Shown here: positions 1,093 through 39,048 of the stretch, piece by piece
How positions within the stretch are numbered: position 1 is the first letter of the stretch
Layout of the letters: the number at the start of each line of letters is the position of its first letter
NCBI RefSeq assembly: GCF_009765825.1
Contig: NZ_LMUR01000003.1
Coordinates: forward strand, 283,864-347,863
Reading direction: 5' to 3'
Length of the DNA stretch: 64,000 nucleotides
Origin: Granulicella sp. L60
GTDB taxonomy: Bacteria; Acidobacteriota; Terriglobia; Terriglobales; Acidobacteriaceae
Made by a program: the position numbers and the translations under genes
The notes under the pieces: model-generated
The model's database searches: none
What the model saw: only the letters and a program-made list of their open reading frames with translations
What the model was told of the DNA's origin: nothing

Positions 1093-1133
1093 CATAAGCA
1101 GAAACAATCAAAGGCCGGTGCAAACAGTATTGG
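1093..1133 (+). promoter_or_regulatory. 41-bp LysR-type element, copy 1
   Basis: Begins CATAAGCAGAA, has ATCAAA at element positions 15-20 and ends AAACAGTATTGG. It lies 102 bp before the start of the SnoaL-like gene at 1236. It matches copy 2 (5245-5285) at most positions with identical length. Inferred binding site of one of the three LysR paralogs in the window. Confidence 0.75.
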
Positions 1134-1235
1134 CTAATTCCTAAAGCCTGGCGCATCCTAACCTTGCTCTCTGGCCGTTCGGGTACGAGCCCGAGACCTT
1201 GGATGCCATGCGATTTGTTGATTGAGAGGTCTTAT

Positions 1236-1616
1236 ATGGTTGTGTCAGAAGACTTGCGCAAAGCGATGAAGGAAACGAAGGAAAGGTTTTGCTCCAAAGT
1301 CGTTGGAGAAGGGAAGTTCGAAGAGATTGACCATGTCTATACGGTCGACGCCCGAATTCTACCGCCAGGAGCGCCGCTCATGAGAGGGCGCGAGGCAATC
1401 AAGCAGTTTTGGCAGACAGGCATCGCAGCACTTGGGATCAAAGGGGCGCGACTGACGACGCTAGAGCTTGAGATGGCGGGGGACACGGCAGTAGAGATCG
1501 GGGAGGCAGAGCTGCATCTGGGAGAAAATGGAACGGCAATCGCCAAGTACATTGTGCATTGGAAACGAGTAGACGACCAGTGGCTCTGGGACAAGGACAT
1601 CTGGAACATGAACTGA
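1236..1616 (+). CDS. SnoaL/NTF2-like (DUF4440-type) protein
   Basis: A 126-residue protein with the cone-shaped SnoaL/ketosteroid-isomerase-like pattern: N-terminal helices, 'YTVDARILPPGAPLMRGREAI' (typical 'F..DA.ll.Pg.p...G..aI'), then strands ending 'GTAIAKYIVHWKR', and a final 'W.lDKDIWN'. Family members bind or isomerise small hydrophobic molecules and many are uncharacterised. I place the start at the ATG preceded by GAGAGG (5 bp spacing); an in-frame ATG 72 bp upstream has no ribosome site. The 41-bp LysR-type element lies about 100 bp upstream. It precedes an isochorismatase-like hydrolase on the same strand, separated by a long palindrome, so the two may be co-regulated. The substrate is unknown. 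Confidence 0.85.
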   Translation: MVVSEDLRKAMKETKERFCSKVVGEGKFEEIDHVYTVDARILPPGAPLMRGREAIKQFWQTGIAALGIKGARLTTLELEMAGDTAVEIGEAELHLGENGTAIAKYIVHWKRVDDQWLWDKDIWNMN

Positions 1617-1751
1617 GCAACCTCCTCGAGAATCCGGCCGCTCAGGCGACCTCACATCGAACCACCGGTCTTCCTTACTTTTGAAGACCGGCAAAACAAC
1701 CACCCCGACCGGTCCATAAAAAACTGAGTCGAGTCGAGAACGGTCCTTCAA

Positions 1752-1785
1752 GGCAGAGTGAGATGTGTGTACATCTCACTTTGCC
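1752..1785. promoter_or_regulatory. 34-bp near-perfect palindrome (operator or hairpin)
   Basis: Two 15-bp arms (GGCAGAGTGAGATGT and its partner) around a GTGT centre, with one G-T mismatch. It lies 27 bp before the isochorismatase start. The core GATGTGTGTACATC resembles the MarR-type motif found elsewhere in the window with one substitution. No T-run follows, so an operator or 5'-UTR hairpin is more likely than a terminator. Confidence 0.6.
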
Positions 1786-1811
1786 AGGGGCGATAGAAAA
1801 GGAAGAAGCTC

Positions 1812-2444
1812 ATGGTAGAAAACAAGCAATATGTGGATCCGAAGACGACGGCATTGGTGCTGATTGAGTATCAAAACGACTTTCTATCACCGAAGGGTGC
1901 AATGCACGCTGGGGTAAAGGATGTCGTAAAGAGCAGCAACATGCTTGCTAATACAGCCGAAACGGTTGAGAAGGCTCGCGCATTGGGCGCAACTATCATG
2001 TTCCTCCCGATCACGTTTGCCGATGGTTTTGGTGAGCTAGGTGATCATCCATACGGTCTCCTTTCAAAGGTGATTGAGGCAAATGCCTTTCGTAAGGGGA
2101 CATGGGGCGCAGAGCTCGTCGATGACCTGCCTCGGCAGGCCGGTGACATCATCGTCGAAGGGAAAAGAGGATTCGACGGCTTTGCCACCACCAATCTCGA
2201 TTTCATCCTACGTCGTCGTGGAATTACTACGATTGCGATCGGCGGCCTGTTAACGAACTGCTGTGTCGAATCCACCGCTCGCACTGGATACGATCTGGGC
2301 TACGATGTCGTCACGCTAACCGATTGCACCGCCACGATTGGCGAGGAAGAGCAGCGTGCGGCAGTGGAGAAGAACTTCTGGATGTTCTCACGCCCGCTCA
2401 CGCACCTTGAATTCCTCGCACAGCTCAAGCCAAAGGCAGCTTAG
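1812..2444 (+). CDS. Isochorismatase-family cysteine hydrolase
   Basis: A 210-residue cytoplasmic alpha/beta hydrolase of the isochorismatase-like superfamily. The catalytic triad is visible: Asp in 'LIEYQNDF' (about residue 23), Lys in 'VEGKRGFDGF' (about 117) and the nucleophile Cys in 'GGLLTNCCVESTAR' (about 150), preceded by the usual non-proline cis-peptide-like segment. Family members hydrolyse isochorismate, nicotinamide, N-carbamoyl compounds, ureido acids or similar amides; nothing here fixes the substrate. Length is normal. The ATG follows GGAAGAAG. It follows the SnoaL-like gene and a 34-bp palindrome, and ends before a strong hairpin, so it is probably the last gene of its unit. 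Confidence 0.9.
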   Translation: MVENKQYVDPKTTALVLIEYQNDFLSPKGAMHAGVKDVVKSSNMLANTAETVEKARALGATIMFLPITFADGFGELGDHPYGLLSKVIEANAFRKGTWGAELVDDLPRQAGDIIVEGKRGFDGFATTNLDFILRRRGITTIAIGGLLTNCCVESTARTGYDLGYDVVTLTDCTATIGEEEQRAAVEKNFWMFSRPLTHLEFLAQLKPKAA

Positions 2445-2471
2445 CTTCGGTCTTTCTGGTCAACGGTTCAG

Positions 2472-2522
2472 GGGGAGGTATCACTTGCAAGCACCGCTGG
2501 TGCCCGTAAGTGATGCCTCCCC
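2472..2522 (+). terminator. Stem-loop downstream of the isochorismatase gene
   Basis: Stem of GGGGAGG-T-ATCACTT with AAGTGAT-G-CCTCCCC (15 pairs including one wobble); the loop contains a further GCACC/GGTGC hairpin. It is followed by an AT-rich tract rather than a clean T-run. Located 28 bp after the stop codon. Confidence 0.6.
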
Positions 2523-2596
2523 ATAATTTATGCCCCGCACTGGACGGCTCTCTGATACTTGTAAGCCGACTCGGCAGCTTGTTGGGTTCAATAGGA

Positions 2597-2625
2597 TGGG
2601 GCGATTACTGAGTGTCATCGCCCCA
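2597..2625 (-). terminator. Stem-loop downstream of the exported FAH gene
   Basis: Perfect 9-bp stem TGGGGCGAT/ATCGCCCCA with an 11-nt loop, 36 bp beyond the stop of the minus-strand FAH gene and facing the isochorismatase terminator. No clear T-run. Confidence 0.5.
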
Positions 2626-2660
2626 TATAACAACTTCAACCATTTCCTATATCTTTGTCG

Positions 2661-3666: not shown

Positions 3667-4533
3667 TCAGATCGTGGCTATCAGATGCCGGGCAACGGAA
3701 GACACATTACCGCGCTGCCATGAAAGTAGCAGTCGAACCTCACGCATCGTGTTCTTGATTGGGCGCGTTACAACATTCTCCCTTGTGAATGCAGACACGG
3801 AAGCCGGCATGATGGATACACCGACACCAACCGAAACCAGGCCGATCGCTGTCTGCCAAGTTGCTACTTCCTGGATCGACCTAGGTTTTAGGCCGTAGTC
3901 TGCAAATTCAAGCATTACGGCCTCGGAGAGAGTGGCTGCTACCTCTTTGGAAGGCAATATTAGCCGGTCATTTGTTAGATCTGTGACGTCGATAAAGCTC
4001 TGCTTTGCGAGAGGGTGCCGGCTATTCAGGACTACAATCAAAGACTCGGGAGCCAATTCACGACAATTGAACTCTTCGTTTGGAGTTGTGTAGGAGATTG
4101 CGATATCGATCTCCCCAACGCGCAATGCAACGGCCTGATCGTCACTTCCCATCTCTTTCAGCTGGATAGCGACGTCGGGATAGTGATCCGCGAAGTTCTT
4201 GACCAATTGCGGAACAACGACGACATCGGCCGCAGTTCCGAACCCAATCGCAAGATGGCCGAGTTCGCCTCGTCCTGCCCGTTGAGCTGCGAACTTCGCC
4301 CCTTCAAACCTTCTGAGGCTTCTCTCCGCTTCAAGGAGAAACACCTCGCCGGCAATTGTTAAAGAAAGCTTGCGGCCGTTGCGGTGGATTAGAGGTGTTC
4401 CCAGTTCTTCCTCCAACTGCTGGATATTCTGGGTTAAGGCAGGTTGCGCGATATGAAGTAGCTCCGCTGCACGTGTCATGTGGAGTGTGCGAGCGAGAAC
4501 GCTGAAGTAACGGAGATGACGATTTTCGATCAT
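3667..4533 (-). CDS. LysR-family transcriptional regulator, paralog 1
   Basis: A 288-residue LysR regulator. Residues 1-60 form the winged HTH ('MIENRHLRYFSVLARTLHMT', then 'IAQPALTQNIQQLEEELGT'); residues 90-285 form the two-lobed effector domain ('LGHLAIGFG...', 'IGLVSVGVGVSIMPASV'). The start is set at MIENRH because two other window regulators (29833-30699 and 35518-36384) start identically and have exactly 288 residues; the longer open frame adds 23 unrelated residues. Recognition-helix residues are nearly the same in all three, so they probably bind similar DNA. It sits upstream of the exported FAH gene on the same strand and is divergent from the glcG/mandelate-like operon, which carries a 41-bp element. 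The inducer is unknown, probably an aromatic or hydroxy acid. Confidence 0.92.
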   Translation of the reverse strand: MIENRHLRYFSVLARTLHMTRAAELLHIAQPALTQNIQQLEEELGTPLIHRNGRKLSLTIAGEVFLLEAERSLRRFEGAKFAAQRAGRGELGHLAIGFGTAADVVVVPQLVKNFADHYPDVAIQLKEMGSDDQAVALRVGEIDIAISYTTPNEEFNCRELAPESLIVVLNSRHPLAKQSFIDVTDLTNDRLILPSKEVAATLSEAVMLEFADYGLKPRSIQEVATWQTAIGLVSVGVGVSIMPASVSAFTRENVVTRPIKNTMREVRLLLSWQRGNVSSVARHLIATI

Positions 4534-5244
4534 ATAATCAGCGACCTGCCTTTCTATTTCGGTTTGGCACCGCGGTGACCTCGAGAGGGCGCATATCAAC
4601 AAGTTCGGTAATCGAGTGCCTGGAAAAGTGGCTCAATGGGGCTCTACAGTAAAGCGTTTCCTACGGATGACGCACTACCATTTGGAGGTCCGGAGTCCGT
4701 TCGCATACTCCCAATTTCGGTCTAGCGGAATACCTTAGTTCGTCGACCCTTGCCTACGAACTCAAGGTACATAGGTTTGGAGTCGAGTCGCGTCCATAAA
4801 ACCCATGAAATGTTTGCATAGAGAGTATGTTCAATCTGCAATCAGCTCTCTGTCCTTAAGGAGACGATGCCAGAGCAATCTCTATCATCGCGTCTGTACT
4901 TCCACGATTCGCGAAGGTGGAACTTGTGTTTGAAATTGTGTCGGGGCGTCTGCTCCGCACACTCCTTTTGTCTTCATCTCTGATAGGAAATCGAGTGATT
5001 GTACGGGCTGTGCGGCCCCGGTTCTGGCGTGAATTGCCCGACCAACCGAGATGACGCCACGTCACAGATGCAGTCAAAAGGAACATATCAGACCGCTTGT
5101 ACCCATCGCTCTTTGAAGAAGCACAACCCCGGCTACGCAATGCGAATAGGGAATAGATGAAATGACAAACTCTCATGCTGCGATTCGTTGTTCCGACCGA
5201 AGCTACTGAGCGTGCATTATCGGTTGCGATAGGAGGTTGTCTTG
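4534..5244. other. Intergenic region between LysR 1 and glcG-like operon
   Basis: About 700 bp with no credible gene. A 193-codon minus-strand open frame (4856-5437) crosses the regulatory element and the glcG start, has no ribosome site and resembles no family. Confidence 0.5.
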
Positions 5245-5285
5245 CATAAGCAGAAGCGATCATAAGACACCCAAAACAGTATTGG
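5245..5285 (+). promoter_or_regulatory. 41-bp LysR-type element, copy 2
   Basis: CATAAGCAGAAG at the left, ATCATAA in the middle, AAACAGTATTGG at the right, 88 bp before the glcG-like start. It is the closest relative of copy 1. It sits in front of the four-gene mandelate-like operon, divergent from LysR paralog 1. Confidence 0.75.
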
Positions 5286-5373: not shown

Positions 5374-5805
5374 ATGTCGAAGACCGCACTGTATCAAAGC
5401 CGCAATCAATTGACCTACGCTGGGGCAGCAATCGCAATTGCCGCGGCAGTGTCTAAGTCCAGGGAGATTTCTGCACCGGAATGCATTGCGGTTGTTGACG
5501 CCGGTGGGAATCTACTGGCGTATGCTCGTGTCGAGGGTGCCGCAGCCTTGGCAGTCCAGCCGGCAATCGCCAAGGCGTCGACCGCAGCGGCCCTCGGGGG
5601 CCCCACCGGCGGGACACCTTTCGAGTTTGGTGCCAACCTCGCCTTAGCCAGCCTGGGAGGGATTACTAATCTCGGCGGAGGCTTCCCGATCATTTACAAA
5701 GATGAATTGCTTGGCGCCATCGGAGTCGGGTCCGGAAGCACCGAGCAGGACGTAGCCGTAGCCGAGGCTGGTCGCGACGCCTTATTGGCCGCATTGGAGT
5801 CCTAA
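5374..5805 (+). CDS. GlcG/HbpS-family protein (DUF336)
   Basis: A 143-residue protein of the GlcG/HbpS fold. Visible signatures are 'AAIAIAAAVSKSREIS', 'IAVVDAGGNLLAYARVEGA', 'AIAKASTAAALGGPT' and 'GGFPIIYKDELLGAIGVGSGSTEQDVAVAEAG', covering the whole family domain. Members are found beside glycolate, diol and hydroxy-acid oxidation genes; some bind haem or act as small ligand-binding subunits, and most have no proven enzymatic role. The ATG follows AAGGAG at about 8 bp. The stop codon overlaps the next start by one base (TAATG), so translation of the royal-jelly-like gene is probably coupled. First gene of a likely operon with the racemase-like and decarboxylase-like genes. Confidence 0.9.
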   Translation: MSKTALYQSRNQLTYAGAAIAIAAAVSKSREISAPECIAVVDAGGNLLAYARVEGAAALAVQPAIAKASTAAALGGPTGGTPFEFGANLALASLGGITNLGGGFPIIYKDELLGAIGVGSGSTEQDVAVAEAGRDALLAALES

Positions 5806-7058
5806 TGACAACTCAAGTCTGGCATCTTCGCCAATCGCACACGAGAATTATCTGGACCTGTCTCGCGTTCTGGCTCTTGTTAAACCTGCTTTTTACGGAA
5901 AAGGCGCGTTCCCAATCGTTCGGAGGTGATATGAAGAATACGGCTAGCTCCTTGGAACCTCATTCAGGCGAAAGAATCGCCACTGATCGCAGTATCGGAA
6001 GTATTGAGCCGGTATTTCGCTTCTTTGACGCAATGCCGACTGGGATAACGGTTGCTCAAGATGGCCGCATCTTCATAAATTTCCCACGCTGGGGAGACGA
6101 CGTCCCGTTCACAGTCGGAGTGGTTCAGGATGGCAAAGTTGTGGCTTATCCGGATCAAACGATGAATACATTCGACCCGACACGCCCGGCAGAAACTCTC
6201 GCAAGCGTGCAAAGTGTGGTCGTCGACCCCGCAAACCGACTGTGGATTCTGGACACGGCCGCTCCAAAATTCTCAACCCCTCTGGCGGGTGCGGCAAAGC
6301 TCGTCGGTGTCGACCTAGCGACCAATAAAGTCGTGAAGAGCATTGTCCTTCCTCCGACGACGGTCCTGCCGACGACCTACCTCAACGACGTGCGATTCGA
6401 CTTGCGGGAGGGCAAAGGTGGCATCGCTTATATTACGGATTCTTCTGCTAACGGCCCGGGCGGCATCATTGTGGTTGATCTCGAAACTGGGGAGAGTTGG
6501 CGCAAGCTCTCCGGTCACAAATCGACTACAGCCGATCTGTCCTTCGTCCCTATCGTCGAAGGCGACCGGCTTGCTATGAGAGAGAAGGGAAAGTCTCCTG
6601 TGGCGATGACCATCGCTTCGGATGGTATCGCAATATCCTCCGACGGAAGAACGCTCTATTACTGTCCGCTATCCAGCCGACATCTCTATTCTGTGCCGAC
6701 CAAGCTTCTTTTGAATCGCTCAGGCAGCGAACAGGAGATCGCGGCATCGGTCGTGGACCTGGGCGAAAAAGGTGCGTCGGACGGTCTTGAAAGCGACGAC
6801 AAGGGGCGGATTTACGCCGGCGATTTCGAGCACAATAGCATTCGGCAGATGCAAACGAATGGCGAATGGAAAACAATCGTTCATGATCCGAGGGTTCTCT
6901 GGCCCGACACCCTCTCCGTGGCAGCGGACGGCTACCTGTATTTCACCGCTAATCAATTTGAACGCCAGCCACAGTTTAATGAGGGTAGGGATCTGCGCGA
7001 AAAGCCGTACATGTTGTTTCGAGTGAAGATCGATGCGGGGCCTGTCCTGCTCAAATAG
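5805..7058 (+). CDS. Secreted major royal jelly/yellow-family beta-propeller protein
   Basis: A 417-residue protein with a hydrophobic export signal at residues 15-36, then a yellow/MRJP-type propeller. Repeating blade motifs are clear: 'PTGITVAQDGRIFINFPRW', 'VVVDPANRLWILDTAAP', 'YLNDVRFD', 'AYITDSS', 'IVVDLETGESWRKL', 'DGIAISSDGRTLYYCPLSS' and 'SDGLESDDKGRIYAGDFEHNSI'. Bacterial members are often annotated as gluconolactonase- or SMP-30-like, suggesting a lactone or small ligand, but catalysis is unproven. It overlaps glcG by one base and precedes the racemase-like gene by about 170 bp. In this context a periplasmic lactone-opening or ligand-binding role for the pathway is plausible but inferred. 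Confidence 0.85.
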   Translation: MTTQVWHLRQSHTRIIWTCLAFWLLLNLLFTEKARSQSFGGDMKNTASSLEPHSGERIATDRSIGSIEPVFRFFDAMPTGITVAQDGRIFINFPRWGDDVPFTVGVVQDGKVVAYPDQTMNTFDPTRPAETLASVQSVVVDPANRLWILDTAAPKFSTPLAGAAKLVGVDLATNKVVKSIVLPPTTVLPTTYLNDVRFDLREGKGGIAYITDSSANGPGGIIVVDLETGESWRKLSGHKSTTADLSFVPIVEGDRLAMREKGKSPVAMTIASDGIAISSDGRTLYYCPLSSRHLYSVPTKLLLNRSGSEQEIAASVVDLGEKGASDGLESDDKGRIYAGDFEHNSIRQMQTNGEWKTIVHDPRVLWPDTLSVAADGYLYFTANQFERQPQFNEGRDLREKPYMLFRVKIDAGPVLLK

Positions 7059-7231
7059 CAGAGGCTCGCAATTCGGAGAGTGCTAAAGTTCGTCGCTTCC
7101 GACCGTCTTCTATCCATTAAGGGCATTCCTAGTTGGTGTCGCCGCTGTTACATCGCAGGCAGCGACCTCGGCGGAACTGCGGCCATTGACCATAGCCTCG
7201 GCCTTTGCCAGCTCAAAATGAAAGGAGCACT

Positions 7232-8326
7232 ATGACTTCGATAAGCCGTCTCAAACGCGCCAATGTGAGGGCCGTGCTTGTCCCGCTCCGACGACCAATC
7301 ATCGCAGCCATTGGCAATTTCAAACAGTGGCCTTTGATCCTTGTAGACCTGGAGATGGAAGGCGGCACTGTTGGATCGAGTTATATCGCGCCCTATCGCG
7401 AGCAAGCAGTGTTGGCAATCATTGCCGAGATTGACGACATTGTGGCGCAACTTGCAGGTCGCTCGGCTCCTTTCGAGGCGTTTCAGAGTGCTCAGAATGC
7501 CCTCAACGTCGTCGGCGTAAGCGGTGTTTCGACCCTCGCGACTGCCGCGGTAGATATGGCGCTTTGGGACGCGCTGGCAAAAGAAGCCGGACTTCCATTG
7601 GCATGCCTGCTGGGAGGAAGCATAGGACCCATCCGCGCTTACAACAGCAACGGCCTGTGGCGGCACAGCGTCGACACGTTAGGCGTCGAGGCAAAAGAGC
7701 TGCTTGCAGAAGGGGGCTTCACCGCGGCTAAGCTTCGATTGGGCAATGAGCATCTGCGCGACGACTTGGCGGCGATTCGCGCTGTTCGCGATGCTGTGGG
7801 CGCAGAGGTAGACATTATGGTGGACTTCAATCAGGCTCTTGGGCTTGGCGATGCCATTCGAAGATGCTGTGATCTGGATAACGAGGGGCTTTATTGGCTG
7901 GAAGAGCCGATCCTCTACAACAACGTAGCCGGTTACGCGGAGCTCGCAAAACGCGTGAAGACGCCACTCCAAATGGGGGAGAACTTCTATGGTGAGCGTG
8001 ATCTGATGAATTTCCTTAATGCAAAAGCATTGCACTACGTGATGCCCGATCTTATGCGTATCGGAGGTATCAGCGGGTGGATAAGGACTGCAGGGGTCGC
8101 TGCGGCAGCAGGGATACAGATGTCCAATCATGTCTACCCCGAAGTTTCTGCGCATCTGCTCCGCGTCACTCCCACCGCTCATTGGTTGGAGTGGGTGGAC
8201 TGGGCGAATCCGATTCTCGCCGACCCTATTGTTCCCAGTAAGGGGCAAATTACCGCTCTCAATAAACCTGGGACCGGGATTGAGTGGAATGAGAAAGCCA
8301 TCGCGAAGTACGGGCTGAAAGATTAG
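7232..8326 (+). CDS. Mandelate racemase-like enolase-superfamily enzyme
   Basis: A 364-residue enzyme closely patterned on Pseudomonas mandelate racemase. Metal ligands Asp198 ('MVDFNQ'), Glu224 ('LEEP') and Glu250 ('GENF') are present, as are the Asp273/His300 dyad ('MPDLMRIGG', 'SNHVYPEVSAHLL') and Glu320 ('AHWLEW'), all at a constant +3 offset from the Pseudomonas numbering. The one catalytic change is at the KxK motif: 'AAKLRLG' keeps Lys167 but has Arg169 where racemases have the S-specific base Lys166. A true two-base racemase is therefore doubtful; a dehydratase or one-sided epimerase is possible. The ATG follows AAAGGAG. It lies 79 bp before a benzoylformate decarboxylase-like gene, so the pair looks like part of a mandelate-type pathway, with no mandelate dehydrogenase in the window. 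Confidence 0.88.
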   Translation: MTSISRLKRANVRAVLVPLRRPIIAAIGNFKQWPLILVDLEMEGGTVGSSYIAPYREQAVLAIIAEIDDIVAQLAGRSAPFEAFQSAQNALNVVGVSGVSTLATAAVDMALWDALAKEAGLPLACLLGGSIGPIRAYNSNGLWRHSVDTLGVEAKELLAEGGFTAAKLRLGNEHLRDDLAAIRAVRDAVGAEVDIMVDFNQALGLGDAIRRCCDLDNEGLYWLEEPILYNNVAGYAELAKRVKTPLQMGENFYGERDLMNFLNAKALHYVMPDLMRIGGISGWIRTAGVAAAAGIQMSNHVYPEVSAHLLRVTPTAHWLEWVDWANPILADPIVPSKGQITALNKPGTGIEWNEKAIAKYGLKD

Positions 8327-8405
8327 TCAATCGACTGCTGGTTCCTGCCCGCGTATCTCTGCGGAGGAGTGCCGAGTCCACACAGTCTACGAAGAGGAGA
8401 AAGAG

Positions 8406-10061
8406 ATGGCGACCGTTAGGGAAGTGCTATTTGAATTGATGAGGCAGCTCGACATGACCAAGATATTCGGCAATGTGGGCTCGACTGAAGAGCCAATGCT
8501 GAAGGAGTTTCCGTCGGACTTCCAATACATTCTTGCACTTCAAGAGTCTGTGGCTGTCGCTATGGCAGACGCGTATTCCCAGGCGTCTGGCAAGGTAGTT
8601 CATGTCAATCTACATACGGCGGCCGGTAGCGGTAACGCCATGGGAAACATCGAGACCGCATTTTATAACCGGACTCCAATGATCATTACGGCTGGACAGC
8701 ATATGCGAGAGATGCTGATCCATGAACCATATCTCACAAATAAAAACCCGTACCAGCAGGCTCAACCATGGGTTAAGTGGAGCTATGAGCCTGCTCGCGC
8801 TGAAGATGTGCCGGCGGCATTCTTTCGAGCTTACGCAACCGCAATTCAGGCGCCCGCGGGCCCCGTTTACCTCTCTCTACCGATGGACGACATGGACAGA
8901 GAGTGCCCAGATCTGCCTCGTCTGCGTAGGGTCGAGGCGCGACTCTCAGCCGGAAAAGATGTCTTACAGCCTGTGGCCGAGGCCCTCGCCGCAGCGAAGT
9001 CCCCAGCGCTAATATTCGGCGGTGCCATTGATCAGACCGGGGGCTGGTACGACGCAATCGCGTTGGCAGAGAAGCTGAATGCCTCCGTTTGGGCTGCCCC
9101 CTTCGAAGGTCGACCGGGTTTCCCGGAGAACCATCCCCTTTATCAGGGTGGGTTACTCAGCGGCATGAGTTCTGTGTGCAAGCAGCTTGAAGGATACGAT
9201 TTGGTCGTAGTCATCGGTGCTCCAGTCTTTCGCTACTATCCCTATGCGCCGGGACATCCGTTGCCACATGGCACCAAGCTCATCCACCTTAGCGATAGCG
9301 CAGAAGAAACAGCTCGCGCTGTCGTCGGCGACAGCGTTGTTTGCGATCCGGCGCGAGCTTGTGCAACTCTGGTCGAGCTACTCCCCAAGACCTCCCGTAA
9401 AGCTCCGTCCCCCATACCTTCATCCCCCGAACCAAAAGTTGCGGAGGTCATCACGGCTGACTACCTCTATCACACAGTAGCGCGACTTCGTTCGAAGGAT
9501 TCGGTCATAGTGCAGGAATCGCTGTCCACTCTGGGACCACTACACGATCGCATCAGGATCTCGGAGCCTAGATCATTCTTCTCAATGTTCAGCGGTGTTC
9601 TTGGCTATGGCCTTCCCGCTGCAGGCGGAGTCGCTTTGGCAGAACGAGACCTCGGAACGAATCGTAAAGTGATTTGCCTTATGGGTGACGGCGCTACTCA
9701 ATATGTGATTCAGTCCTTTTGGACCGCCTCGCAGCACAAGCTTCCTGTCTTCTATATCATCCTCCGCAATCACGCCTACAACATTCTCAAAGCATTCAGT
9801 ACTTATCTGGTCGCACCGGAGGTGCCCGGGTTCGATCTGCCTGGCATCGATACAGTACAACTCGCCAAGGGATACGGATGCGAAGGTGATTATGTCTCAA
9901 ACCCCTCCGAGCTAGAGGCCGCAATTATCAAAGGACTCGCGTTCCCAGGACCTTACGTGCTGCAGGTGGAGGTCGATGCTACCCTTATGCCCCTTCTCGG
10001 AAAGGTTGGGCCTGCAACGCAATACTCCAATGAACTAAACGCGGGCGCCGAAACTCTGTAA
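8406..10061 (+). CDS. Benzoylformate decarboxylase-like ThDP enzyme
   Basis: A 551-residue thiamine diphosphate enzyme, aligned end to end with Pseudomonas MdlC. Ser26 ('FGNVGSTE'), the cofactor-activating Glu47 ('LALQES') and His70 ('VNLHTAAGSGNAMG') occupy the same residue numbers. The second active-site histidine of MdlC (His281 in 'FRYHQY') is replaced by Tyr278 ('FRYYPY'). The ThDP motif is 'MGDGATQ' ending 'ILRN' instead of the usual 'NN'. It presumably decarboxylates a 2-oxo acid to an aldehyde, but the histidine loss argues against assuming benzoylformate. The ATG follows AGGAGAAAGAG. It is last in the glcG/royal-jelly/racemase run under the 41-bp element. Length is about 20 residues above MdlC, mainly around residues 320-350. 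Confidence 0.88.
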   Translation: MATVREVLFELMRQLDMTKIFGNVGSTEEPMLKEFPSDFQYILALQESVAVAMADAYSQASGKVVHVNLHTAAGSGNAMGNIETAFYNRTPMIITAGQHMREMLIHEPYLTNKNPYQQAQPWVKWSYEPARAEDVPAAFFRAYATAIQAPAGPVYLSLPMDDMDRECPDLPRLRRVEARLSAGKDVLQPVAEALAAAKSPALIFGGAIDQTGGWYDAIALAEKLNASVWAAPFEGRPGFPENHPLYQGGLLSGMSSVCKQLEGYDLVVVIGAPVFRYYPYAPGHPLPHGTKLIHLSDSAEETARAVVGDSVVCDPARACATLVELLPKTSRKAPSPIPSSPEPKVAEVITADYLYHTVARLRSKDSVIVQESLSTLGPLHDRIRISEPRSFFSMFSGVLGYGLPAAGGVALAERDLGTNRKVICLMGDGATQYVIQSFWTASQHKLPVFYIILRNHAYNILKAFSTYLVAPEVPGFDLPGIDTVQLAKGYGCEGDYVSNPSELEAAIIKGLAFPGPYVLQVEVDATLMPLLGKVGPATQYSNELNAGAETL

Positions 10062-10173
10062 GCGCAAAACGCATGAACTTTCGTTCATCTCTTTTAATCG
10101 GCGGAGTGAAACTTTGGATTAAACGGTAAGTAGTAAATCTCGCACGAGTCACACCGGAAGGAAGGTCTTTCCC

Positions 10174-11598: not shown

Positions 11599-11768
11599 CT
11601 TCAAGCAGCCTGCTTTCAGAAAATGGCGATCGACGATAACCCCTCACAAGAAAGATGTCAGTATGAACGCAAAAGCCATTCATAGGTCGCTGTCCGCTAC
11701 CCGCTCTGTTCATCGGTGCGGCAGTCGAGGTCACGCAGGATGAAGCATGAAGAAATCGAGGAAACACA

Positions 11769-13430: not shown

Positions 13431-13553
13431 TTTTCAACTGAAATGCCGAACGATTTGATCGTTGCGCGAGTCACGAAAAGTAGTGTCCTTTACCGCTGCA
13501 GCGAGTTTGGCGAATATTGAACGTTCTTTACTTCATATTGATACGGAGACGAA

Positions 13554-16049: not shown

Positions 16050-16090
16050 GATAAGTGGCCTTTATCAAACGAGGTGTCAAACACTATCGA
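16050..16090 (+). promoter_or_regulatory. 41-bp LysR-type element, copy 3
   Basis: GATAAGTGGCC at the left, TTATCAAAC in the middle, AAACACTATCGA at the right. It ends 89 bp before the start of the exported unknown protein at 16180, the same spacing as at other copies. Confidence 0.75.
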
Positions 16091-26780: not shown

Positions 26781-26821
26781 TATAAGTTCGCCTTATCAAA
26801 ACTCACGTTAAAGAGTATTGG
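26781..26821 (+). promoter_or_regulatory. 41-bp LysR-type element, copy 4
   Basis: TATAAGTTCGCC at the left, TTATCAAAACTC in the middle, TTAAAGAGTATTGG at the right. The next gene downstream is the broken PepO gene at 27189, 367 bp away, farther than at other copies. The 26822-27188 interval holds no gene I recognise. Confidence 0.7.
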
Positions 26822-29832: not shown

Positions 29833-30699
29833 CTAAATGACAGAAAGCAAATGCTTTACATTACTAGAAACTTCGTTTTTTCTCCAGAGTACCGACAATC
29901 GAACTCCATTACATGCGCTCAGAATAGGGCGAATAGCTACGCCCTCCCGTTGTAGCACCTGTACTGAAGCCGGCATTAGCGACACTCCGAGACCAGCCGA
30001 AACCATGCCAAGGGCCGATTGATAGGTCGAAAGCTCTTGGGTCGAGTGAGGTCTAAACCCAGTACTTGAGCATTCCGCAAGGATGGCGTCGGTCAATGTT
30101 GCGGCAGCGTATCTCGTCGGGATGATGAGCGTTTCCTCCGTCAACTCGCCAACGGAGATGATCTTTTGGTTCGCCAGCGAATGTTGAGTGTGGAGGGCGA
30201 TGACCAACTGTTCAGGTTTAAGTTCACGGCTCTGAAATTCATCGCTTGGAGGTGCGTAGGCTACCGCGACGTTAATCTCACCGCTTCGAAGAGCCGCTAG
30301 CTGCGGTTCCATCCCCAGCTCTCTTAGCTGGATCGCGACATCTGGGAACATGGCACGAGCTCTCTTCACGAATTGGGGAATGAACTGGAGACCTGCCGAG
30401 CTGCTGAAGCCAACAATGACCTGTCCAACCGGAGGTAATCCAGCCTTCCGGGCCGCTGTCTTGGCGAATTCGAACTGCTCGAGGCTAAGCGCCGCCTTTA
30501 TCTGGAACGCGATTCCCGCATCTGTCAATGTAAGGTTACGTCCTGATCGACGTATGAGCATCGTGCCTAGCTCTTTTTCCAATTGCTGCATGTTTTGCGT
30601 GAGAGTAGGCTGGGAAATCTGTAAATGGGCGGCGGCCTGCCGCATATGGAGCGTCTTCGCAAGAACAACAAAGTAGCGTAGATGGCGATTTTCGATCAT
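29833..30699 (-). CDS. LysR-family transcriptional regulator, paralog 2
   Basis: A 288-residue LysR regulator, paralogous to those at 3667-4533 and 35518-36384. HTH residues 1-60: 'MIENRHLRYFVVLAKTLHMR', 'ISQPTLTQNMQQLEKELGT'. The effector domain shows 'VGQVIVGFSSSAGLQFIPQFV' and 'LGMVSAGLGVSLMPASV'. It is the most divergent of the three in the HTH (MRQAAAHLQ against MTRAAE.L). The start is MIENRH; the frame extends upstream by 35 residues that match nothing. It is divergent from the SnoaL-like/UspA unit, with a 41-bp element between the two, so it probably activates them. The effector is unknown. Confidence 0.92.
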   Translation of the reverse strand: MIENRHLRYFVVLAKTLHMRQAAAHLQISQPTLTQNMQQLEKELGTMLIRRSGRNLTLTDAGIAFQIKAALSLEQFEFAKTAARKAGLPPVGQVIVGFSSSAGLQFIPQFVKRARAMFPDVAIQLRELGMEPQLAALRSGEINVAVAYAPPSDEFQSRELKPEQLVIALHTQHSLANQKIISVGELTEETLIIPTRYAAATLTDAILAECSSTGFRPHSTQELSTYQSALGMVSAGLGVSLMPASVQVLQREGVAIRPILSACNGVRLSVLWRKNEVSSNVKHLLSVI

Positions 30700-30792
30700 T
30701 GGTTCTCCCAAGCTCGGTGCATAGTGATCCTTCGATGACGAATGCCCCCAAAAGGCCGCGTTGGTTATTTGATTTGCACATCTGCGTTCAGC

Positions 30793-30833
30793 GATAGGTA
30801 GCACTTATCAAATACCGCCATAGATCCTATCGA
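30793..30833 (+). promoter_or_regulatory. 41-bp LysR-type element, copy 5
   Basis: GATAGGTAGCAC at the left, TTATCAAATACC in the middle, GATCCTATCGA at the right. It lies midway between the divergent LysR paralog 2 (start 30699) and the SnoaL-like gene (start 30925, 91 bp away). Confidence 0.75.
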
Positions 30834-32157: not shown

Positions 32158-32198
32158 GATAAGTAGAGGCTATCGTTTGCCTCGCAATATCCTATCGA
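32158..32198 (+). promoter_or_regulatory. 41-bp LysR-type element, copy 6
   Basis: GATAAGTAGAGGC at the left, TATCG in the middle, ATATCCTATCGA at the right; the AAA after ATC is lost in this copy. It lies 96 bp before the glycosyltransferase start. Confidence 0.7.
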
Positions 32199-33695: not shown

Positions 33696-34697
33696 GTGCG
33701 ATTAGTAACTTATTCCCATAATTCTAAGATCTTCGCTGGGCTTCTTTCCGCATCCTTTAGACATATCTTCCCACTCGATAATCTCGGATATGGAGGTGCA
33801 CTCGCCTTCGTCGTGGCAGGTGAAAAGGCCTGGAAAAATGCCTCGGAATGGGCGAACATGGTCTCGACAAGAGAGATGGTTGCCCGTTCGGAGGTCGCAC
33901 TGCTTCCGCCCTTGCCGAGACCAGGCAAATTCCTTTGCATTGGCGCCAACTATCGCGATCGGGCATCTGAGGTGGGACTCAACAGAACGGCAGTTCCTGA
34001 AATCTTCACTAAGTTTCCAAGTGCGATCGTCGGCCACGGTGCCAACGTCATCATCCCATCGATGACCAAACAGCCGGATTACGAGGCTGAGTTGGCTATT
34101 GTCATCGGTAAAACCTGTAAACGGGTTGCTGCAAAAGACTGGCAGGAATATGTCTTCGGCTATACGATCGTCAACGATATCAGCGCAAGAGATCCCGAAC
34201 TTGCGAACTCCCCATGGAACAAGGGTAAGAACTTCGATACGTTCGCGCCGGTGGGCCCGGCGATCGTATGCAAGAATGAGATCCCTGATCCCCACGTGCT
34301 AAATATCAGTTTGGCGATTGACGGGGTGGTGATGCAGAATTCAAATACCCGTCGTCTGATCTTCAAGATTCCTGAGCTGATAGCGTATCTCTCGAACAGC
34401 ATAACCCTGGAGCCAGGAGACATTATCAGCACTGGTACGCCTGCAGGATGTGGATTTCGGCACAACCCACAACGCTGGCTCAGGCATGGGGATACCGTGA
34501 CAATCAAGATTGAAGGTATCGGTTCATTGCGAAACAAATTCCTTTCAGAATCACTTGGCGGCGAACACGCTGACCTGCAAACCTCTAACAAGAGAGAGGA
34601 GCACGGACGAGGTGTCTCTCATGCCCGTCGGAGCAGAGCGAGAAGTCGAGGTTTGCTTCGGGACAGGCGAGACTTTGTTGCTGAAACGGAAATCTGA
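33696..34697 (+). CDS. FAH-family hydrolase/isomerase with unusual C-terminal tail
   Basis: A 333-residue cytoplasmic FAH-superfamily enzyme. The domain has 'GKFLCIGANYRDRASEVGL', metal-binding 'YEAELAIVIGKTCKRV', 'FGYTIVNDISARDPE' and 'EPGDIISTGTPAGCGF'. Relatives hydrolyse acylpyruvates or isomerise 2-hydroxyhepta-2,4-diene-1,7-dioate in homoprotocatechuate degradation. The start is GTG at 33696, preceded by AAAGGA; an upstream TTG in the same frame lacks support. After the FAH fold ends ('LRNKFLSESLGG') the frame continues about 45 Arg/Glu-rich residues antisense to the ECF sigma gene, overlapping it by 79 bp; this tail suggests a lost stop codon or recent rearrangement. It follows the glycosyltransferase by 30 bp. 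Confidence 0.85.
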   Translation: MRLVTYSHNSKIFAGLLSASFRHIFPLDNLGYGGALAFVVAGEKAWKNASEWANMVSTREMVARSEVALLPPLPRPGKFLCIGANYRDRASEVGLNRTAVPEIFTKFPSAIVGHGANVIIPSMTKQPDYEAELAIVIGKTCKRVAAKDWQEYVFGYTIVNDISARDPELANSPWNKGKNFDTFAPVGPAIVCKNEIPDPHVLNISLAIDGVVMQNSNTRRLIFKIPELIAYLSNSITLEPGDIISTGTPAGCGFRHNPQRWLRHGDTVTIKIEGIGSLRNKFLSESLGGEHADLQTSNKREEHGRGVSHARRSRARSRGLLRDRRDFVAETEI

Positions 34698-35233
34698 TTG
34701 GCTGAGGCGATATCTCGTACCGAATGTCCCCGAATGAAGTGCATCTCAACGATGGAGCGGTGACTTGCCGGGAGCCCATTGATCGCTCCCCGGAGCCGCT
34801 GATTTCGCTCCCGAGTGGCGTAGAGTTCTTCGGGATTTGGAGAGGTATCTGAAAGTTCGACCATGGGCTCTCCCGCCTCATTGGTATTCAGCTCTTCAAG
34901 GGAAACAGCGAAGTGCCGCTTTCTTTTGCGCAGAATCATTAAAGCTGAGTTGATACCAATTCTGGTGAACCATGTTGAGAAGCTTGATCTCCCGTCGAAG
35001 GAATCGAGCCGTCGAAAAGCCCGAAGAGTGGCGTCCTGAAAGGCATCCTCTGCATCCTCGAGATTCTTGGTGATCCGAAGGATCGTCAAAAGCACGCGTT
35101 TTGAGTTGTGTTCGCACAATTGCGAGAACGCCTCATTATCACCCGATTTTGCTGCGAACACTAACGAGGCGTCTGCGCACATCGGCTCTGAACTCATTTG
35201 AGATAGCTCAGTGTTGGCGCGAGTTAGCTCCAT
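34619..35233 (-). CDS. ECF-type RNA polymerase sigma factor
   Basis: A 204-residue extracytoplasmic-function-type sigma factor. Region 2 (residues 25-100) is 'DAEDAFQDATLRAFRRLDSFDGRSSFSTWFTRIGINSALMIL'. Region 4 (residues 145-200) is 'LPASHRSIVEMHFIRGHSVRDIASANQISVSATKSRLSRSKPRL'. No anti-sigma gene is adjacent, and no extra C-terminal domain is seen. It is convergent with and overlaps the FAH-like gene by 79 bp. A minus-strand 41-bp LysR-type element lies 234 bp upstream of its start, just past the 3' end of LysR paralog 3, so it could be a member of the proposed regulon. Confidence 0.9.
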   Translation of the reverse strand: MELTRANTELSQMSSEPMCADASLVFAAKSGDNEAFSQLCEHNSKRVLLTILRITKNLEDAEDAFQDATLRAFRRLDSFDGRSSFSTWFTRIGINSALMILRKRKRHFAVSLEELNTNEAGEPMVELSDTSPNPEELYATRERNQRLRGAINGLPASHRSIVEMHFIRGHSVRDIASANQISVSATKSRLSRSKPRLLALLRRA

Positions 35234-35467: not shown

Positions 35468-35508
35468 CCAATACTGTTTAAGAGGAGTTTTGATTCGGAT
35501 TACTTATG
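35468..35508 (-). promoter_or_regulatory. 41-bp LysR-type element, copy 7 (minus strand)
   Basis: On the minus strand: CATAAGTAATCCG, ATCAAAACTCC, TTAAACAGTATTGG. It starts 10 bp after the LysR paralog 3 stop and points toward the ECF sigma gene 234 bp away. The interval 35234-35467 has no gene. Confidence 0.7.
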
Positions 35509-35517
35509 ATGTCGGCG

Positions 35518-36384
35518 TTAGATGAGGGCCATAAAATTGCCGACTACCGGAGAAATGTCTCCGCGCTTCCATAGAAGTGATAACCCGATTTCACTGTGAG
35601 CATCTGCCAGCTTTTTCATCACAACACCCGGTCGAGCGAGAATACTTACGGTTGCCGGGATCAGCAGGACGCCGTAACCGAACGCGACAAGCCCGAGGGC
35701 CGCTGGCCAAGTCGTTACCTCTTGGATATTGCGCGGTTCGAATCCAGCGTTCTTGCACAGCGCCAGCATTGCATTCGAAAGGCTTGCAGCGACGTACATA
35801 GCAGGAACGATCAGAAGCTCGTCGGTTAGCTCGCTCAGCGAAATAACTTCCCGGTCGGCCAGGGGGTGACCGGCATTCAACGCAAGCAATAGCTGTTCAG
35901 GGGGGAGCTGTCTTGCGCAAAACTCCTCGTCCGGCAGAGCGTAGGTAATCGCGACGTCAATCTGTCCTGAACGCAACGCGCCGAGCTGAGCATCCATTCC
36001 CATCTCCCTCATCCGAATGTTTACATCTGGGTACCTGTTTTTGAAGACGGTTACAACTTCTGGGATCAGCTGGATGCCGGCTGTGCTATTGAAGCCGACA
36101 GAGACGTGTCCTAGTTCTCCTCTGCCTGCTCTCTGAGCAGCGAGTTTCGCTAGTTCGAACTGTTGAAGACTATTCTCTGCCTCCTGGAGGAAAACTTCTC
36201 CAGCCGCCGTGAGCGACAGCTTGCGTCCCGTTCTCTGAATCAGCGTAGTCCCTAACTCTTCCTCCAATTGCTGAATGTTCTGGGTCAAGGCGGGCTGTGC
36301 AAGATACAACTGTTCCGCGGCCCGCGTCATATGAAGCGTTCGAGCCAGCACTGTGAAATATCGTAGGTGTCGGTTCTCAATCAT
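35518..36384 (-). CDS. LysR-family transcriptional regulator, paralog 3
   Basis: A 288-residue LysR regulator. HTH: 'MIENRHLRYFTVLARTLHMT', 'LAQPALTQNIQQLEEELGT', nearly identical to paralog 1. Effector domain: 'LGHVSVGFNSTAGIQLIPEVV', 'LGLVAFGYGVLLIPATVSI'. It differs more from paralog 1 in the effector domain, suggesting a different inducer but similar DNA target. It is divergent from the tautomerase gene; that 500-bp gap has both a 41-bp element and a MarR-type site. Downstream on the same strand is another element and then the ECF sigma gene. Confidence 0.93.
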   Translation of the reverse strand: MIENRHLRYFTVLARTLHMTRAAEQLYLAQPALTQNIQQLEEELGTTLIQRTGRKLSLTAAGEVFLQEAENSLQQFELAKLAAQRAGRGELGHVSVGFNSTAGIQLIPEVVTVFKNRYPDVNIRMREMGMDAQLGALRSGQIDVAITYALPDEEFCARQLPPEQLLLALNAGHPLADREVISLSELTDELLIVPAMYVAASLSNAMLALCKNAGFEPRNIQEVTTWPAALGLVAFGYGVLLIPATVSILARPGVVMKKLADAHSEIGLSLLWKRGDISPVVGNFMALI

Positions 36385-36654: not shown

Positions 36655-36668
36655 GATGTATGCACACC
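36655..36668. promoter_or_regulatory. MarR-type site upstream of the tautomerase
   Basis: GATGTATGCACACC, one change from the consensus GATGTATACACACC. It lies 29 bp before the 41-bp element copy 8. Otherwise the 36385-36885 gap shows no gene. Confidence 0.5.
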
Positions 36669-36696
36669 TCCAAAGTAGCACGGCGTCGCGATCAGC

Positions 36697-36737
36697 GATA
36701 AGCAATGCTTATCAAAACCTGTCGAAAGTTCTATCGA
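36697..36737 (+). promoter_or_regulatory. 41-bp LysR-type element, copy 8
   Basis: GATAAGCAATGCTTATC forms a perfect 7-bp-arm dyad here, followed by AAAACC, and the right end is AAAGTTCTATCGA. It is the clearest copy of the recognition dyad. It lies 148 bp before the exported tautomerase start and is divergent from LysR paralog 3. Confidence 0.8.
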
Positions 36738-36885
36738 GCATCAAGCCGAATAGAACAGTCTAACCAAATAGGGCGCTTTTAAAATTAGGTGCCAACTCGT
36801 AACTCCCGCGACGCGCGCTGGCGAACCTGGAATCAACAATAGCAATTGCGCAACCCTACCTCTGCGATGCAGATATGGAGAGTCC

Positions 36886-37479: not shown

Positions 37480-37555
37480 CCGAGTGACACTTCGTAACGT
37501 TCTGGGGTGTGTGTCGATTAATTCTCGCCGCACACCTGTTTTCATCTTGGTGCGC

Positions 37556-38824
37556 TCATCTCGTCATCAGGAGGATAGATTTTTGTCTTCCAGTGAGGGC
37601 ATGGATGGCACAGCCCGTCAAAACAAGGGCACAACCAAAACCACAGACCCCCGCCCATCCAAACCGCTGCCATAGCGCCGTGCCAGCGTAAGACCCAAAT
37701 GCTCCGGCAGTGAAGTAGCAGATCATGTAGACCATATTCAGCCGACTCCGGGCTTCCGGAACGAGGCTGTAGATCCGGGTTTGATTGGAAATATGCCCTG
37801 CCTGCACGCCTACATCAAGGAGGATGACCCCCGCGACCAACCCGGCCAAGTGGATGCCCCACAGATACATGACGGCGAATGACAGTAGCGTCAGCAGCAA
37901 TGCGACCAAAATATTCCGACGGGCTCCATATTTATCTGCCGTACGACCGATTAGTGGGGCGCATATAGCGCCCGCAGCACCGACAAGTCCAAATAAACCG
38001 GCGACACCACTTCCGTAGTGATACGGCGGGGTCTGCAAGAAAAATACCAGAGTCGTCCAAAAGGCACTGAAGGCGCAGAAGAATGTAGCTCCGAGGAGAG
38101 TTGATTCTCTCAACAATGGCTGGGTGCGTATGAGGTTTCCAGTTGATCGGATCAAAGAAAACCACGAAAGCTTCAGTTCCGGTTCACTACGAGGAAGCCA
38201 GTTGTGAATCAGCGTGGCAACGAAGATCATCATTGCCGCCGCAATCCAGTAAATCGCACGCCAACCGAACCAGGCCCCCACGAGACCACTCAGTGTTCGT
38301 GCCAATAGGATTCCAAACAGGAGGCCTGACAAGACGGTCCCGACAGTCGTTCCGCGGCGCTCGGGATGTGAAAGATTTGCGGCATAGGGCACGATCAGGT
38401 GGACAATAGCACCGGAGAAACCTACACCAAGGCTGGCCGCAACAAGTCCCATGAGATTCTTCGCGGTCGCCATTCCGACAAGGCAAATTGCAGCACCAGC
38501 CAAAAGCCGAACAATTAGCTGCCTGCGTTCCTTCGTATCCCCTAAAGGCACAAAGAGCAGCATAGCGACTGCTGTGCCCAATTGAGACACCATCGCAACC
38601 GCCCCAACCGTGGTGACCGAGACGTTGAAGTCATCCGCAATAGCAGACAACAAGGGCTGTATGTAGTAGACGTTAGCTACGATAGCGCCTGCGCTGAATG
38701 CCATCATCCAAACGTGGGCGGAGGTCAGATATGTTAACGTGGCGGCACTCGGTCTTATTTGCCTCTCCACTAAGACCCTCCTCGCGACGCTCATTTCGCG
38801 ACCTGTGCGGAGATCACGGGGCAA
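37556..38824 (-). CDS. MFS transporter
   Basis: A 422-residue major facilitator with 12 predicted helices. The start region 'HVWMMAFSAGAIVANVYYIQPLLSAIADDFNVS' and the loop 2-3 motif 'FVPLGDTKERRQLI' are typical of drug/aromatic efflux carriers of the YgaY/Cmx type. The carried compound is unknown. A second start ten residues downstream (MSVARR) is possible. It is convergent with the exported tautomerase (gap 76 bp). The MarR-type palindrome GATGTATACACACC lies 70 bp upstream of its start, so it is likely repressed by the MarR protein and induced by the same compound as the chorismate mutase and acyltransferase genes. Confidence 0.92.
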   Translation of the reverse strand: MPRDLRTGREMSVARRVLVERQIRPSAATLTYLTSAHVWMMAFSAGAIVANVYYIQPLLSAIADDFNVSVTTVGAVAMVSQLGTAVAMLLFVPLGDTKERRQLIVRLLAGAAICLVGMATAKNLMGLVAASLGVGFSGAIVHLIVPYAANLSHPERRGTTVGTVLSGLLFGILLARTLSGLVGAWFGWRAIYWIAAAMMIFVATLIHNWLPRSEPELKLSWFSLIRSTGNLIRTQPLLRESTLLGATFFCAFSAFWTTLVFFLQTPPYHYGSGVAGLFGLVGAAGAICAPLIGRTADKYGARRNILVALLLTLLSFAVMYLWGIHLAGLVAGVILLDVGVQAGHISNQTRIYSLVPEARSRLNMVYMICYFTAGAFGSYAGTALWQRFGWAGVCGFGCALVLTGCAIHALTGRQKSILLMTR

Positions 38825-38893
38825 AGATATCCAGGTATTGATGTGATGCCGAGCTGGCGCAAAATAGGCAGCCGGAAGACTTGATCTCGACTA

Positions 38894-38907
38894 GATGTAT
38901 ACACACC
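38894..38907. promoter_or_regulatory. MarR-type site upstream of the MFS gene
   Basis: GATGTATACACACC, 70 bp before the MFS start on the minus strand. Identical in all 14 bases to the site at 44696-44709. Confidence 0.7.
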
Positions 38908-39007
38908 CATAAGGCTACCACGCATCGGATGCAGAATTGCGCGTTTTGTGGGAGTTCTATGGGGATTCAAGCCGAAATGCTCTTCGTCGCGAGATGTTCT
39001 TCGCCCC

Positions 39008-39048
39008 TATAAGTAAGGCCTATCAAAAACCCTGGTAAAGCCTATTGG
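39008..39048 (+). promoter_or_regulatory. 41-bp LysR-type element, copy 9
   Basis: TATAAGTAAGGCC at the left, TATCAAAAACC in the middle, GTAAAGCCTATTGG at the right. It lies 110 bp before the tandem universal stress protein gene. The 334-bp gap with the MFS gene otherwise contains only the MarR-type site. Confidence 0.75.

What the first reader, a model, noticed from the sequence alone, without database searches (positions are those of the whole stretch)
1093..39048. Nine copies of a fixed-length 41-bp regulatory element define a new LysR-type regulon
Copies at 1093, 5245, 16050, 26781, 30793, 32158, 35468 (minus), 36697 and 39008 all run exactly 41 bp from NATA(A/G)G at the left, through ATC (mostly TATCAAA) at positions 14-20, to TATYGR at the right end. 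Six end 88-110 bp before a start codon: SnoaL-like, glcG operon, exported unknown, SnoaL-like 2, glycosyltransferase and tandem Usp. One ends 148 bp before the tautomerase. Best copies show a dyad such as GATAAGC-AAT-GCTTATC, as expected for a LysR recognition site followed by an activation site. Chance cannot explain the constant length and position. It joins metabolically distinct genes in one circuit.
Basis: partly seen in the sequence, partly recalled or inferred. Interest (0 to 1): 0.92.

Follow-up and report, generated by a model that had tools for sequence, protein, structure and literature searches.

The report
Shared LysR switch across gene island
A 41-letter DNA switch stands before about eleven genes or operons packed into one 49,000-base stretch of a soil-type bacterium's genome and is very probably read by a small family of regulator proteins encoded in that same stretch, so that these genes are likely to be switched as a set.

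Summary
All nine copies exist as stated, with constant length. The genome holds ten full copies plus one with a decayed left half, all within 49 kb of a 5.9-Mb genome; two lie left of the window. A -10-like sequence starts 20-21 nt after the full copies. The layout is that of a complete LysR-type (LTTR) operator-promoter: a T-N11-A box near -65 and a second half-site overlapping the -35.

Of four LTTR genes in the window, three are close paralogues. That LTTR subfamily occurs in 8 of 398 genomes of the bacterial family, and the same 8 hold every element match at E < 0.001 (partly circular). In all six genomes with a single such LTTR an element lies beside its gene, though some of these sites are weak.

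An LTTR regulon is thus strongly supported by comparison; binding is unproven. 'One circuit' is not shown: three paralogues may share or divide the sites. It works like the nod box/NodD and BenM/CatM systems. New member of a known kind.

The parts
1093..1133 (+). element before SnoaL/DUF4440 gene (ATG 1236, 102 nt)
   Evidence: orthologous copy in S. bohemicum C12:671129-, 37 of 41 identical
5245..5285 (+). element before the HbpS-like operon (ATG 5374, 88 nt)
   Evidence: orthologous copy C12:667244-, 37 of 41 identical
16050..16090 (+). element (TATCGA type) before an exported unknown, followed by catalase
26781..26821 (+). element with unclear target (next is a split M13 peptidase gene, 397 nt)
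30793..30833 (+). element (TATCGA type) before SnoaL_2-Usp, divergent from LTTR w29833
32158..32198 (+). element (TATCGA type) before glycosyltransferase and FAA hydrolase genes
35468..35508 (-). element pointing at the ECF sigma-factor gene (234 nt)
   Evidence: orthologous copy C12:654879+, 31 of 41 identical
36697..36737 (+). element (TATCGA type) before the tautomerase gene (148 nt), in the gap divergent from LTTR w35518
   Evidence: degenerate counterpart before the tautomerase gene in S. bohemicum, C12:653872-
39008..39048 (+). element before the tandem Usp gene (107-110 nt)
3667..4602 (-). LTTR paralogue w3667 (conserved start near 4533)
   Evidence: Pfam LysR_substrate and HTH_1; 88% to an LTTR of S. 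bohemicum
29833..30804 (-). LTTR paralogue w29833 (conserved start near 30699); no orthologue in the S. bohemicum island
35518..36384 (-). LTTR paralogue w35518
   Evidence: 85% to an LTTR of S. bohemicum
34619..35233 (-). ECF sigma-factor gene, predicted target
5374..14951 (+). predicted target operon: HbpS-like, MRJP-like, enolase-superfamily dehydratase, benzoylformate-decarboxylase-like, DUF418, CRP-like/pyridine-nucleotide oxidoreductase, G6PD (extent inferred from spacing)

Best explanation
The 41-bp element is a complete LTTR operator. Positions 2-17 (ATAAG..TATC, containing T-N11-A) are the recognition site. The half-site TATYGR at 36-41, 22 bp after TATC, is the activation site and overlaps the -35 of a sigma-70-type promoter whose -10 starts 20-21 nt after the element. 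The cognate regulators are the three close LTTR paralogues of the island (w3667, w29833, w35518): as tetramers they would hold the recognition site, move onto the -35-proximal half-site when they bind an effector, and activate transcription. The regulon is local: eleven promoters within 49 kb and, at the thresholds used, none elsewhere in the genome. Shown: the sites, their spacing, confinement, conservation in another genus, and co-occurrence with this LTTR subfamily. Inferred: binding, activation, sharing among the paralogues, operon extents. The effector is unknown; targets (catalase, Usp, tautomerase, FAA hydrolase, isochorismatase-like, SnoaL-like, oxidoreductases) and the AlsR/HcaR/BenM-like regulator type suggest an organic acid or a reactive electrophile, which is a guess.
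For: Nine exact sites in the window, none in 100 shuffles; genome-wide only the island. -10-like hexamer at offset 21: 0 of 2000 random shifts reach the observed mean for 16 sites of two genera or for all 21. Orthologous promoter pairs keep the element (31-37 of 41) and not the 40 nt before it (10-16 of 40). LTTR subfamily at E <= 1.7e-110 in 8 of 398 genomes, next best 3.4e-65; all 25 element matches at E < 0.001 lie in those 8. With a matrix trained on this genome and S. bohemicum only, the best hit of the 20-kb stretch around the LTTR is the LTTR-adjacent site in 5 of 6 other genomes (18.5, 20.9, 19.0, 11.3, 6.4 bits); the sixth, G357, has a site at 21.6 bits with a matrix not trained on it, best of 30 simulated 20-kb sequences 13.7. 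The profile R1, trained on the same two genomes, has the LTTR-adjacent site as its best hit in all of G160 and of G119.
Against: No binding or expression data. Of the single-LTTR sites, those of G188 (11.3) and above all G231 (6.4 bits; shuffles reached 8.6) are weak in the untrained matrix; G264 also has a 15.0-bit hit away from the LTTR. R1 at E <= 1 missed the LTTR-adjacent sites of G264, G188, G231 and G357 and scored another place in G264. The co-occurrence count is partly circular, and that search scored 12 candidates per genome with strict filters. The matrix leaves out the left half, a choice made after I saw the G357 sequence. The -10 signal is not significant for the six S. bohemicum sites alone (446 of 2000) and moderate for the ten here (45 of 2000). 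Targets of 26781 and of S. bohemicum 653364- are unclear. Two other LTTRs (w40130 and one left of the window) are not excluded as binders by experiment.
Confidence: 0.86

Rival explanations
1. The sites form two or three separate sub-regulons, one per paralogue: TATTGG sites (CATNNT -10) read by w3667 and/or w35518, TATCGA sites (TCTAA -10) read by w29833, so there is no single circuit.
For: Among the 16 stronger sites of the two genomes, 5 of 5 TATCGA sites have TC[TC]AA at offset 21 and 10 of 11 TATTGG sites have CATNNT at offset 20-21. The LTTR w29833 has no orthologue in the S. bohemicum island, where 5 of 5 full sites are TATTGG; its divergent site here is TATCGA.
Against: S. bohemicum keeps a degenerate TATCGA site before its tautomerase gene, beside the w35518 orthologue. 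Other genera mix the types: TATTGG with TCTAAA in G264, G188, G231; TATCGC in G160, G119; the two decayed sites have TATTGA or TATTAC with TCTAA. A better -35 (TTGG) balanced by a poorer -10 would give the same pairing.
Confidence: 0.35
2. One of the three paralogues is the regulator of all eleven sites; the others bind elsewhere or only at their own promoters.
For: One such LTTR with one or two sites is enough in six other genomes.
Against: The paralogues have similar recognition helices and at least two are kept together in S. bohemicum; BenM and CatM show that paralogues can bind the same regions (PMC6628147, passages).
Confidence: 0.25
3. Another factor of the island reads the element: the ECF sigma factor, LTTR w40130, or the LTTR left of the window.
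For: These genes also lie in the island, and the sigma factor and the left LTTR are kept in S. bohemicum.
Against: In the 20-kb stretches of the six single-LTTR genomes, among the reading frames of at least 70 aa no BLAST match to these sigma factors or to the left LTTR was found beside the element, only the paralogue family (the stretches are 20 kb only). ECF sigma relatives are in 8 of 8 genomes, but outside the two islands they are at 35-51% identity, and the element precedes a separate -10.
Confidence: 0.06
4. The element is a mobile or structural repeat without a role in transcription.
For: Several alike short copies in one region.
Against: No shared flank; 11 of 11 copies lie upstream of a gene on their own strand, though the gene after 26781 is uncertain; half-sites are kept between genera while spacer positions 24-29 drift in three of four pairs; no scattered copies in the genome.
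Confidence: 0.02

Closest known systems
nod box / NodD of rhizobia (PMC5596368, passages read)
   Same: A conserved LTTR element of fixed length (47 bp) upstream of operons, in the divergent gap beside the regulator gene, with more than one NodD isoform. The sites of G264, G188 and G231 even fit ATC-N9-GAT (read from the sequences). Many copies within one symbiosis region: from recall.
   Different: 41 bp here; in the window's genome the half-sites are ATAAG/TATC, not ATC/GAT; the targets are not nodulation genes; the regulators match AlsR/HcaR/BenM models best.
BenM/CatM of Acinetobacter baylyi (PMC6628147, passages read)
   Same: Paralogous LTTRs binding the same promoter regions; T-N11-A inside ATAC-N7-GTAT; Site 2 overlaps the -35.
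   Different: Half-site letters differ; here there are eleven promoters, three paralogues, and a nearly invariant activation half-site; BenM and CatM equivalog cut-offs are not met.
General LTTR operator, recognition plus activation site (PMC8407307, passages read)
   Same: T-N11-A box near -65 and an activation site at the -35.
   Different: Here the activation half-site is as conserved as the recognition site, so the copies look like one fixed-length word.

Membership tests
LTTR-activated operator-promoter | T-N11-A box | tested here: met
   T3 and A15 invariant in 15 of 15 copies; A15 in 24 of 24, T3 lost in the decayed or distant ones
LTTR-activated operator-promoter | box centred near -65 and second half-site at the -35 | tested here: met
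   From the -10 at offset 20-21; transcription starts are inferred, not mapped
LTTR-activated operator-promoter | LTTR gene beside or near the operator | tested here: met
   six single-LTTR genomes
LTTR-activated operator-promoter | binding of the LTTR and effector-dependent activation | not testable with these tools
   Needs footprint and expression tests
LysR-type regulators (the proteins) | HTH_1 plus LysR_substrate domains | tested here: met
   All three paralogues above the Pfam cut-offs
AlsR or HcaR equivalogs | NCBIfam curated score cut-off | tested here: not met
   AlsR 219-239 bits against 430; HcaR 176-211 against 356
BenM or CatM equivalogs | NCBIfam curated score cut-off | tested here: not met
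   BenM 110-127 bits against 600, CatM 107-122 against 580
nod box | 47 bp with ATC-N9-GAT, before nod genes | tested here: not met
   41 bp, ATAAG..TATC in this genome; no nod genes among the genes scanned

The most novel reading that the evidence does not exclude
An acidobacterial counterpart of the nod-box system: three paralogous LTTRs with different effector pockets converge on one fixed-length operator at eleven promoters of a single island, one of them for an ECF sigma factor, so that several chemical signals are combined by competition for the same sites.
Probability: 0.3. Interest if true: 0.62.

Novelty: new member of a known kind. Interest (0 to 1): 0.47.

Why it matters
Three searches of the open-licence library showed no described LTTR regulon of this bacterial group. 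Here the operator, the promoter spacing, the targets and the candidate regulators can all be read from sequence, which leaves short DNA pieces and three proteins for a direct binding test. It is also a compact case for asking how paralogous regulators share or divide one operator, and how a regulon stays confined to one gene neighbourhood.

Tried and rejected
Searches used a wrong spacing and found nothing; corrected. A strict scheme of one LTTR per site class was considered and weakened by the S. bohemicum tautomerase site and the sites of other genera. The exact-pattern hits outside G000 and G141 (14 of 300 genomes, one each) are somewhat more than the reversed control gave (6 hits); three of them (G271, G163, G017), and one hit of G141 on C16, belong to another LTTR-like motif, ATAGG..CCTATC..TATTGG. 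The genome-contig scan with the LTTR alignment found 129 relatives and kept 80; two are S. bohemicum (85 and 56%), the other 78 are at 28-38% identity and were not searched for sites. In one search one of four mononucleotide shuffles gave a single hit of 20.8 bits, so a lone hit near 20 bits in that matrix is not safe; the decayed copies are accepted for their conservation in both genera and their held-out scores (36.3 and 28.0 bits). In the training set these two were entered one base out of register; they were left out of that.

Not run: structure prediction, fold search, Rfam, PADLOC and PHROG searches, a test for horizontal transfer of the island. Pfam was run on part of the genes only: 40 reading frames of the window (and four more), 10 of the left flank and others of relatives.
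Full report
OBSERVATION. The nine copies are real and exactly placed. With no mismatch the pattern ATARG-N8-ATC-N18-TATYGR gives these nine in 64 kb and none in 100 shuffles. In the whole genome (5.9 Mb, 22 contigs) it gives 11 exact matches: nine in the window, one 10 kb to the left (C16:273927-), and one on C17 that is unlike the rest; three more have one mismatch; the reversed control gave five. A sequence-only profile of 15 copies (R1) finds the same ten at 22-33 bits (E <= 0.0015) and then, at 14.1 bits (E 0.47), C16:274105+. The full element there, 274097-274137, has lost its left half, but its right part and a TCTAA 21 nt downstream are kept in S. bohemicum, and a matrix not trained on it scores it 36.3 bits. 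All eleven lie in C16:273927-322911.

RELATIVE IN ANOTHER GENUS. Of 300 family genomes only G141, besides the own genome, has a cluster. Its C12:650526-683807 is syntenic, partly inverted and rearranged. It holds five full copies and two degenerate ones. Four full copies are orthologous to copies here (before isochorismatase, SnoaL, HbpS and sigma-factor genes); in these pairs the element is 31-37 of 41 identical against 10-16 of 40 just upstream. Nucleotides 21-30 downstream, where the -10 lies, are 10 of 10 identical in three pairs and 1 of 10 in the SnoaL pair, whose spacing differs by one base. The target of the fifth full copy, 653364-, is unclear.

ANATOMY. In 15 copies A2 T3 A4 G6, A15 T16 C17, A30, T36 A37 T38 and G40 are invariant. 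T3-N11-A15 is the LTTR box. TATC at 14-17 and TAT[CT] at 36-39 are 22 bp apart, two helical turns. A -10-like hexamer begins 20-21 nt after the element. The mean match to TATAAT peaks at offset 21; random shifts of the flanks reach the observed peak in 45 of 2000 (10 sites here), 446 of 2000 (6 S. bohemicum sites), 10 of 2000 (5 sites of other genera), and 0 of 2000 for the first 16 and for all 21. With a start about 34 nt after the element (inferred) the box is centred near -65 and TATYGR overlaps the -35. That is the arrangement given for LTTRs in PMC8407307 (passages) and modelled for BenM in PMC6628147 (passages).

REGULATORS. Four LTTR genes lie in the window and one to its left. Three of the window's four are close paralogues, 51-57% identical, with similar recognition helices, w29833 being the most different. 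S. bohemicum has orthologues of two, at 85 and 88%. A profile of this subfamily matches 59 of 398 family genomes at E <= 1e-55, but only eight at E <= 1.7e-110; the next best is 3.4e-65. Six of the eight have one such LTTR. With a matrix trained on this genome and S. bohemicum, the best hit in the 20 kb around it is a site beside the LTTR gene in five of the six: 18.5 (G264), 20.9 (G160), 19.0 (G119), 11.3 (G188) and 6.4 bits (G231). The last is within the range of shuffles (8.6 in 155 kb), and G264 has another hit of 15.0 bits 8 kb away. All five fit AT-N11-AT-N19-TAT[CT]G and are the only such places within about 2.5 kb of the LTTRs (the pattern was written after seeing them). In the sixth, G357, I saw a site by eye in the divergent gap; a matrix of the right part plus -10, not trained on it, gives 21.6 bits, the best of 30 simulated 20-kb sequences being 13.7. 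In four genomes (G357, G264, G188, G231) the site lies in the divergent gap, 78-83 nt from the conserved N-terminus of the LTTR; in two (G160, G119) it precedes a Usp gene convergent with the LTTR gene.

GENOME-WIDE CO-OCCURRENCE. R1 over 26 genomes, eight with the LTTR subfamily and 18 same-genus genomes without, has as best hit the LTTR-adjacent site in G160 (E 0.02) and G119 (E 0.05), but in G264 another place (E 0.05), and nothing at E <= 1 in G188, G231, G357; two of the 18 controls have a match at E 0.5-0.65. A 71-bp profile of 24 sites (R2) over 398 genomes gives 25 matches at E < 0.001, all in the eight LTTR genomes: 11 here, 7 in S. bohemicum, 2 in G264, 1 in each of the other five. 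Of the other 390, six have a match at E <= 0.1, best 17.7 bits. This count is partly circular, since the 24 sites come from the eight genomes, and the search scored 12 candidates per genome with strict filters. The second G264 match, which was not in the training set, lies upstream of an aldehyde dehydrogenase gene; a weaker one in G160 (E 0.005) lies between a more distant LTTR (35% identical) and a divergent MFS gene.

TARGETS. In the window: SnoaL/DUF4440, then an isochorismatase-like gene; the HbpS-like operon (MRJP-like, enolase-superfamily dehydratase, a benzoylformate-decarboxylase equivalog at 611 bits against a cut-off of 493, DUF418, CRP-like/pyridine-nucleotide oxidoreductase, G6PD); an exported unknown followed by catalase; SnoaL_2 and Usp; glycosyltransferase and FAA hydrolase; ECF sigma factor; tautomerase; tandem Usp. 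Left of it: an isochorismatase-like gene and a pyridine-nucleotide oxidoreductase. In G264, G188 and G231 the divergent gene is an MFS transporter. The HbpS-like protein was found in 2 of 300 family genomes at E <= 1e-30, the two with the island.

WHICH REGULATOR READS WHICH SITE. Among the 16 stronger sites of the two genomes, TATCGA copies have TC[TC]AA as -10 (5 of 5) and TATTGG copies CATNNT (10 of 11). This may mean separate specificities, or a better -35 balanced by a poorer -10. Other genera and the two decayed copies break the pairing. I leave it open.

COMPARISON AND VERDICT. It works like the nod box: a fixed-length LTTR element with paralogous regulators (PMC5596368, passages; the many-copy point is recalled). 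By length, letters and targets it is not a nod box. It is an LTTR operator by every feature I could test; binding could not be tested. Searches of the open-licence library: LysR-type with Acidobacteria, binding site and regulon gave one paper, seen in the listing only and on another subject by its title; Silvibacterium with LysR gave none; Terriglobia with transcriptional regulator and regulon gave none. So: a sound observation, a largely correct interpretation, a textbook mechanism, a regulon that these searches do not show as described, and an open question in how three paralogues use one operator.

Noticed in passing
window 27219-29245 +: An M13 peptidase gene is split into two reading frames (N part 27219-28538, C part 28754-29245), probably broken; it follows the element at 26781.
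   Followed up: no
C16, window coordinates -9613 to -8218 + (L017:10251-11646): A pyridine-nucleotide oxidoreductase gene is in two reading frames here but one frame of 463 aa in S. bohemicum.
   Followed up: no
C16, window coordinates -8052 to -2295 - (L017:11812-17569): A block of PAS-rich histidine kinase, two response regulators, ECF sigma factor and a further LTTR, kept in S. bohemicum at 76-84% identity.
   Followed up: partly
L025, L032, L039 (position 1500): A related LTTR-like promoter motif, ATAGG..CCTATC..TATTGG, with a conserved GGTGCTACATTCA about 20 nt downstream, in three other genomes' loci; a different regulon by its look.
   Followed up: no
L195 (G264) and L196 (G160): Two untrained matches of the 71-bp profile: before an aldehyde dehydrogenase gene, and between a 35%-identical LTTR and a divergent MFS gene; the operator type may reach beyond the close subfamily.
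   Followed up: partly
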